64,000 nt of DNA from a virus, in IMG/VR virus record IMGVR_UViG_3300009082_000016, positions 62,001 through 126,000 of that record; one strand, 5' to 3'. The notes under the pieces are model-generated. The model ran no database searches. It was not told the DNA's origin and was given only the letters and a program-made list of their open reading frames with translations. Shown one piece after another: positions 11,859 to 12,253 of the stretch (the stretch's first letter is position 1; each line of letters opens with the position of its first letter). The translations under genes were made by a program, and so were the position numbers.

Positions 11859-12253
11859 TGGAGGTGGCGGGAGTCGAACCCGCGTCCACCTCGATGTGCT
11901 CGCGGCCGCTTCACGAGCGTCCCTGGATTTCTTTCGGTTGCCACCACCCTACCAGGAGCGGGTGGCGGACCTATCGTGACCTGGATACCCACGCTGCACC
12001 GATCACGAAGGCAGCAGCGCCGGGACCACCTGTTCATGCCAAGTCGCTCCATCCCGGTGACCCGGATGGGCGACCCGCCCGATGCCGCTGTTTAGGCGGC
12101 CGCCGCGACCGGCGCGAACGCCGGAGCGCGGCTCGGGAAACGGACCACCTTGCGGTTGGCCGTTCTCAGGTGCTACGCGTTTTTACGGGCGTCGTAGCCT
12201 GCCCGGCTCGCGGCCAAGGAGCTTTCTCGAGGTGTCGAAACCGTGACACCCCC
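11859..12253 (-). ncRNA. ssrA: Transfer-messenger RNA (tmRNA)
   Basis: The minus strand from 12253 begins GGGGGTGTCACGGTTTCGAC, the classical tmRNA 5' end. It finishes with GGACGCGGGTTCGACTCCCG followed by CCACCTCCACC, the classical 3' T-arm and acceptor. GGGGGUG (12253-12247) pairs fully with CACCUCC (11866-11860, one G-U). A reading frame starts at resume codon GCC (12160-12158) and ends at TAA (12094-12092). It encodes ANRKVVRFPS-RAPAFAPVAAAA, which begins A-N and ends in Ala residues as tags do. At 395 bases its length is normal. The genomic 3' end reads CCG, so CCA is not fully encoded. It would rescue stalled ribosomes and tag products for proteolysis. Confidence 0.93.

What the first reader, a model, noticed from the sequence alone, without database searches (positions are those of the whole stretch)
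11859..12253. Phage-encoded tmRNA with a 22-residue, Arg-rich tag
Both ends, acceptor pairing, T-arm and resume codon are intact. The tag (ANRKVVRFPS-RAPAFAPVAAAA) is about twice the usual length and Arg/Pro-rich in the middle, ending in AAAA instead of the common LAA or VAA. Only a few phages are known to carry tmRNA. It may replace the host tmRNA during shutdown or direct tagged proteins differently.
Basis: partly seen in the sequence, partly recalled or inferred. Interest (0 to 1): 0.75.

Follow-up and report, generated by a model that had tools for sequence, protein, structure and literature searches.

The report
Intact tmRNA gene in a phage
A large uncultivated bacterial virus carries a complete gene for tmRNA, the RNA that frees stuck ribosomes and marks the unfinished protein for destruction; its marker peptide is unusually long, but viruses carrying this gene are already known.

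Summary
A complete one-piece tmRNA lies on the minus strand at 12253-11856 (Rfam RF00023, full model, 86.9 bits). I wrote out the G3·U acceptor pair, the P2 helix, PK1-PK4 and the stop codon in the helix-5 loop and found them intact. The tag is exactly ANRKVVRFPSRAPAFAPVAAAA (22 aa). ARAGORN misses the gene. The window is part of a 172.7-kb virus contig (65.8% GC) with terminase, DNA polymerase, baseplate protein and a fused beta-beta' RNA polymerase. It has no tRNA genes and no SmpB, so the tmRNA would need the host's SmpB. Among IMG/VR relatives found through that RNA polymerase, 8 of 77 contigs carry tmRNAs, scattered over the tree and with different tags, which points to repeated gain and loss. 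The closest tag is ANDNIVRQPLRAVA. Phage tmRNAs are well documented (402 phage genomes in one census). The tag is long but within the known range: Parachlamydiaceae have 22-aa tags and other viral contigs 29-39 aa. Tags ending in AAA or AAAA occur elsewhere too. One odd extra feature is a 61-nt tRNA-like element ending in CCA just upstream, probably a tRNA relic. Verdict: a real new member of a known kind, of modest interest.

The parts
11856..12253 (-). one-piece tmRNA (ssrA) gene; the mature RNA would end near 11857, with CCA completed after transcription
   Evidence: RF00023 full length, 86.9 bits
12247..12253 (-). acceptor stem 5' strand GGGGGUG, pairing with 11866-11860 CACCUCC, G-U at pair 3 (alanine identity element)
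   Evidence: pair check, 7/7
12172..12204 (-). pseudoknot PK1 (GGGC/GCCC and GCUACG/CGUAGC)
   Evidence: pair check
12092..12160 (-). tag reading frame: resume codon GCC, ANRKVVRFPSRAPAFAPVAAAA, stop TAA
   Evidence: translation; frame agrees with the covariance-model alignment of the resume codon
12084..12100 (-). helix 5 (GCCGC/GCGGC) with the stop codon in its loop
   Evidence: cmscan alignment and the sequence
12026..12074 (-). pseudoknot PK2
   Evidence: pair check
11974..12019 (-). pseudoknot PK3 (6 bp and 8 bp)
   Evidence: pair check
11922..11968 (-). pseudoknot PK4 (9 bp and 5 bp)
   Evidence: pair check
11860..11894 (-). 3' half of the tRNA-like domain: P2 3' strand, T-arm, acceptor 3' strand
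12277..12337 (-). compact tRNA-like element upstream of the tmRNA: 6-bp acceptor GCUGCG/CGCAGC, short linker, hairpin, T-arm CCGGG-UUCGACA-CCCGG, U-CCA end; probably a tRNA relic
   Evidence: only two T-arms followed by CTCCA in 172.7 kb, this one and the tmRNA's own; fold of 12250-12345 z = -2.68; weak RF04321 match at 12235-12305
12328..12480 (-). small ORF (50 aa) whose stop codon lies inside the tRNA-like element; neighbour, not part of the tmRNA
   Evidence: sequence; no Pfam match

Best explanation
This is a functional, phage-carried one-piece tmRNA gene, captured from a bacterial genome or from another phage. Mechanism: during infection the RNA would be charged with alanine by the host AlaRS (G3-U70 pair), bind host SmpB and EF-Tu, enter ribosomes stalled on broken or non-stop mRNAs, switch translation to its own frame at GCC, add the 22-residue tag and terminate. 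This would free ribosomes and send the incomplete proteins to host proteases through the small, hydrophobic C-terminus. It probably keeps rescue capacity up late in infection, when mRNA is being degraded. Shown: the gene, its complete structure, the tag frame, the phage context, and the absence of tRNAs and SmpB from the contig. Inferred: transcription, charging, SmpB use, degradation of tagged proteins and benefit to the phage.
For: Full-length RF00023 match. All named helices and four pseudoknots form, with 0 of 300 shuffles matching the pseudoknot score. A 398-nt structure with an open tag frame is unlikely to survive in a relic. The contig is a phage: terminase, DNA polymerase, UvsX-like recombinase and RNA polymerase, baseplate protein, RNA polymerase domains. 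tmRNAs recur in the same lineage, 8 of 77 contigs, scattered over the RNA-polymerase tree (9 tmRNA tips, minimum 9 changes), as expected for repeated acquisition and loss. A phage tmRNA elsewhere is of the type expected for its host: a beta-type permuted tmRNA in an Alcaligenes phage.
Against: No expression or activity data. The host is unknown and no close bacterial source was found: in 30 bacterial genomes from several phyla the matches at the tmRNA itself cover only its universally conserved ends. No close relative of this phage was found that could show purifying selection directly. CCA is not fully encoded.
Confidence: 0.85

Rival explanations
1. The long, basic tag is a phage-specific degron or anti-degron: tagged proteins are routed to a different protease, or spared, compared with host-tagged proteins.
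For: The tag is about twice the modal length of 10 aa (PMC11915505), and 5 of its 22 residues are R or K. Other viral contigs also have long tags (29, 30, 39 aa).
Against: The C-terminus VAAAA still looks like a Clp-type small, hydrophobic end. Tags ending in AAA or longer and tags of 22 aa also occur in bacteria, and the Alcaligenes phage tag ends in AAAA. Tags of 19-22 aa in Chlamydiota show that length alone does not imply a new function.
Confidence: 0.1
2. Decoy: the tRNA-like domain competes with host tmRNA for SmpB or AlaRS and inhibits trans-translation, as reported for the tRNA-like-domain-only RNA of mycobacteriophage DS6A.
Against: Here PK1, the tag frame and PK2-4 are all kept, which a decoy does not need.
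Confidence: 0.04
3. Passenger or decaying gene, captured by chance and not used.
For: Sporadic distribution in the family; no tRNAs left on the contig; a probable tRNA relic next door.
Against: Every element of a 398-nt structure is intact.
Confidence: 0.1
4. Host DNA joined to the phage contig by misassembly.
For: The contig is a virus record without known ends, most likely assembled from a metagenome.
Against: The gene lies at 73.9 kb of 172.7 kb with phage genes on both sides. Unrelated contigs of the same lineage also carry tmRNAs.
Confidence: 0.02

Closest known systems
Bacterial one-piece tmRNA (ssrA), Rfam RF00023
   Same: all core elements: acceptor with G3-U, P2, PK1, resume codon, tag frame, helix-5 stop, PK2-4, T-arm
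   Different: tag 22 aa instead of the modal 10; encoded by a phage; tag region and pseudoknots have no close sequence match found
Mycobacteriophage tmRNAs (Bxz1/cluster C1, Wildcat) and Bacillus phage G
   Same: tmRNA genes on large phage genomes (PMC4131195, PMC10281172)
   Different: the C1 phages carry about 30 tRNA genes beside the tmRNA; this contig has none
tmRNA of marine methylophage Melnitz
   Same: phage tmRNA with a proposed ribosome-rescue or recycling role (PMC9004378)
   Different: Melnitz has a two-piece permuted tmRNA with a glutamine riboswitch; this one is one-piece, with no riboswitch found
tmRNA of IMG/VR contig G030 (L105), same phage lineage
   Same: closest tag found, ANDNIVRQPLRAVA (shuffle p about 0.0005, not corrected for 46 tags); fused RNA polymerase about 42% identical in its best segment
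   Different: 14-aa tag; 34 tRNA matches on the contig; no shared neighbour genes at the tmRNA
tmRNA of Alcaligenes phage vB_Af_QDWS595 (not annotated in the record)
   Same: tag ANDNVYAAAA also ends in AAAA; identical 32-nt 3' end
   Different: permuted beta-type gene

Membership tests
tmRNA, one-piece (RF00023) | covariance-model match over the full model above gathering score | tested here: met
   86.9 against 47 bits, 1-374/374
tmRNA, one-piece (RF00023) | tRNA-like domain: 7-bp acceptor with G3-U, stemless D-loop GGUUUCGAC, T-arm | tested here: met
tmRNA, one-piece (RF00023) | long-range P2 helix joining the two halves in standard, not permuted, order | tested here: met
   8, 4, 6 and 5 bp segments
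tmRNA, one-piece (RF00023) | PK1 followed about 11 nt later by an Ala (or Gly) resume codon | tested here: met
   PK1 stem 2 ends at tmRNA position 82, GCC at 94
tmRNA, one-piece (RF00023) | short open tag frame ending in a stop within helix 5, small hydrophobic C-terminus | tested here: met
   ANRKVVRFPSRAPAFAPVAAAA*, TAA in the loop
tmRNA, one-piece (RF00023) | PK2, PK3, PK4 | tested here: met
tmRNA, one-piece (RF00023) | CCA 3' end (encoded or added) | tested here: inconclusive
   the encoded end is ACC-G; addition by the host enzyme is assumed
tmRNA, one-piece (RF00023) | alanylation, SmpB binding, tagging activity | not testable with these tools
   needs RNA or an assay; no SmpB gene on the contig
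permuted (two-piece) tmRNA (RF04321, RF01849-RF01851) | acceptor 3' half upstream of the 5' half and none downstream | tested here: not met
   only a weak RF04321 match, 26.6 against 47 bits; the downstream 3' half pairs perfectly
tRNA (RF00005), for the upstream element 12337-12277 | match to the tRNA model with D-arm and anticodon arm | tested here: not met
   no RF00005 match in the window or whole contig; only acceptor, one hairpin and a T-arm are present

The most novel reading that the evidence does not exclude
The 61-nt tRNA-like element directly upstream of the tmRNA (12337-12277, own T-arm and CCA end) is not a relic. It would be a working compact tRNA-like RNA co-transcribed with the tmRNA: either a processing signal for RNase P or RNase Z, or a second small decoy that regulates the host tmRNA, so that the phage would carry both a rescuer and a regulator of rescue.
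Probability: 0.07. Interest if true: 0.6.

Novelty: new member of a known kind. Interest (0 to 1): 0.33.

Why it matters
It adds an intact one-piece tmRNA, with a long tag, to a deep and mostly uncultivated lineage of phages that encode their own fused RNA polymerase. It shows that such phages can keep a tmRNA with no tRNA genes, and that tmRNAs come and go repeatedly in the lineage. It also shows a bias in past counts: ARAGORN missed 4 of the 9 tmRNAs that the covariance model found in this lineage, and a tmRNA in a published phage was not annotated. Census figures for phage tmRNAs are therefore probably too low.

Tried and rejected
Close relatives through the neighbouring 311-aa protein or the terminase: none found. 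An exact 5'-end pattern in viral contigs: none; the relaxed pattern gave 19 contigs. tmRNAs in the named relatives Vibrio phages D69 and D181 and Salmonella phage Arash: the matches fall among tRNA genes, none reaches the cut-off. Synteny of tmRNA neighbourhoods between the window and eight relatives: no shared neighbour genes at the tmRNA. Naming the host from the tag: the tag recalls cyanobacterial tags from memory (AN-[NK]-IV-x-F-x-R-...-APVAA), but I had no cyanobacterial tmRNA set to test this. Alignments to the cyano-type phage tag of L210 and to the tags of L200 and L133 are only suggestive (p about 0.015-0.02 each, not corrected for 46 tags). Direct BLAST of the tmRNA to 30 bacterial genomes gave, at the tmRNA itself, only the conserved ends. 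Searches within a phylum failed because the tool needs genome handles; I did not repeat them. The idea of a permuted or dual-form gene was rejected on pairing.

Full report
Observation. The window is bases 62001-126000 of a 172,723-base virus record, 65.8% GC. cmscan finds one RNA family in the window: tmRNA RF00023 at 12253-11856 on the minus strand, full model, 86.9 bits. ARAGORN reports nothing.

Structure. I wrote out the pairings. The acceptor is GGGGGUG/CACCUCC with G·U at pair 3, the alanine identity pair (established knowledge). P2 has four segments of 8, 4, 6 and 5 bp. PK1 has 4+6 bp and is followed by 11 nt and the resume codon GCC. The stop TAA lies in the loop of helix 5. PK2 has 5+6 and 5 bp, PK3 6+8 bp, PK4 9+5 bp, and the T-stem 5 bp. 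The pseudoknot-chain score of the PK2-4 region is 44, against 27.7 ± 5.2 in 300 shuffles, none as high. The encoded 3' end is ACC-G, so CCA would be completed by the host enzyme (inference). All the sequence-level requirements of a one-piece tmRNA that I could test are met, apart from the incompletely encoded CCA; activity cannot be tested here.

Carrier. The contig encodes a terminase, DNA polymerase, UvsX-like recombinase, DnaB-like helicase, baseplate protein and a 2068-aa RNA polymerase with Rpb2 and Rpb1 domains in one chain. Named relatives are Vibrio phages D69, D181 and D148 and Salmonella phage Arash, at about 27-30% identity. Those tested carry 22-25 tRNA matches and no tmRNA above the cut-off. 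The window's contig has no tRNA match and no SmpB. It may be incomplete, so these absences hold for the contig only.

Relatives. An alignment of three RNA polymerases fetched 80 IMG/VR loci. In 77 whole records scanned, 8 have a full tmRNA above the cut-off. Their tags are ANPNTGSFTAPLAAVA, AENQLPIAA, ANDNSFAPALAAVA and GAYAPALAA (twice) by ARAGORN, and ANDNIVRQPLRAVA, GNNVIPFPKVAATPVAKAA and a possible 26-aa tag in L104 by hand. The resume codon of GNNVIPFP... is supported by the model alignment. On an RNA-polymerase tree of 83 rows the nine tmRNA carriers need nine changes. That means repeated gain or loss, although many contigs are fragments and absences are uncertain. No SmpB is found in any of 20 records tested. 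ARAGORN missed four of the nine.

How unusual is the tag? The most frequent bacterial tag length is 10 aa (PMC11915505). In the small sample collected here, viral tags have median 14 (range 9-39) and bacterial tags median 11 (range 8-22). The sample is biased by the search patterns and by the lineage. Two Parachlamydiaceae contigs have 22-aa tags, one of them ending in AAAAA. Two viral contigs have 29 and 30 aa, and two related ones have a 39-aa tag. ANDNVYAAAA in an Alcaligenes phage ends as ours does. The tag is therefore long and basic, but not outside the known range. The closest tag, ANDNIVRQPLRAVA, comes from the same phage lineage.

The upstream element. At 12337-12277 on the same strand lies GCUGCG-linker-hairpin-CCGGGUUCGACACCCGG-CGCAGC-UCCA. 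In the whole contig only two T-arm-like hairpins are followed by CTCCA: this one and the tmRNA's own, 420 bases apart. The stretch 12345-12250 folds with z = -2.68. It is not a tRNA by ARAGORN or Rfam. The stop codon of a 50-aa ORF lies in it. In several other viral contigs a tRNA gene lies close to the tmRNA (L102, L206, L207, L216), so a reduced tRNA gene from a lost tRNA-tmRNA array is the simplest reading (inference). A processing or regulatory role is not excluded.

Known or new. Phage tmRNAs are established: mycobacteriophages Bxz1, Wildcat and others and Bacillus phage G (PMC4131195), 402 of 18,146 phage genomes (PMC9004378), 79 unique bacteriophage sequences in the 2025 tmRNA database (PMC11915505). 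This is a new member with a long tag in a little-known lineage. The proposals that it replaces host tmRNA or re-routes tagged proteins remain untested.

Noticed in passing
L207:5249-5767 and L216:338-869 (IMG/VR contigs 3300021446_000035 and 3300046056_000003): Phage tmRNAs with a 39-aa tag, GTLVNFEDETASIADEAMDRLAETEEVFAEEQDALAVLG in L207 and nearly the same in L216; acidic and not ending in AA. More unusual than the tag in the window.
   Followed up: partly
L199 and L200: Permuted phage tmRNAs with 29-aa and 30-aa tags; the L200 tag part KVLAFPAPVVAAPMVAMAA resembles the second half of the window's tag.
   Followed up: partly
L205:11453-11519 (-): A 67-nt tRNA-like-domain-only tmRNA (no PK1, no tag) in a viral contig, like the one of mycobacteriophage DS6A.
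   Followed up: no
L002:1435-1782 (Alcaligenes phage vB_Af_QDWS595, OK149171.2): An unannotated beta-type permuted tmRNA in a published phage, tag ANDNVYAAAA, matching the type of its betaproteobacterial host.
   Followed up: partly
L003:12785-18991 (-), i.e. contig 12785-18991, outside the window: Single-chain beta-beta' RNA polymerase of 2068 aa, split after about residue 1480 in some relatives. Several relatives have large insertions (for example L054, L060, L070, L086) that may be inteins.
   Followed up: no
window 13436-13460 and 14767-14791: A 25-nt repeat GGCGAGGGnCTCTCGCCTGTGGGGA, 96% identical, in two intergenic regions; its core is found nowhere else in the contig.
   Followed up: no
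window 11340-11855 (-): About 515 nt of hairpin-rich sequence without a predicted gene downstream of the tmRNA, ending in a hairpin plus TTCTTTTTTT; weak, below-threshold match to the Streptomyces RNA Scr3202.
   Followed up: no
window 16959-17405 (-): Rubrerythrin-like protein in a phage genome (PF02915).
   Followed up: no
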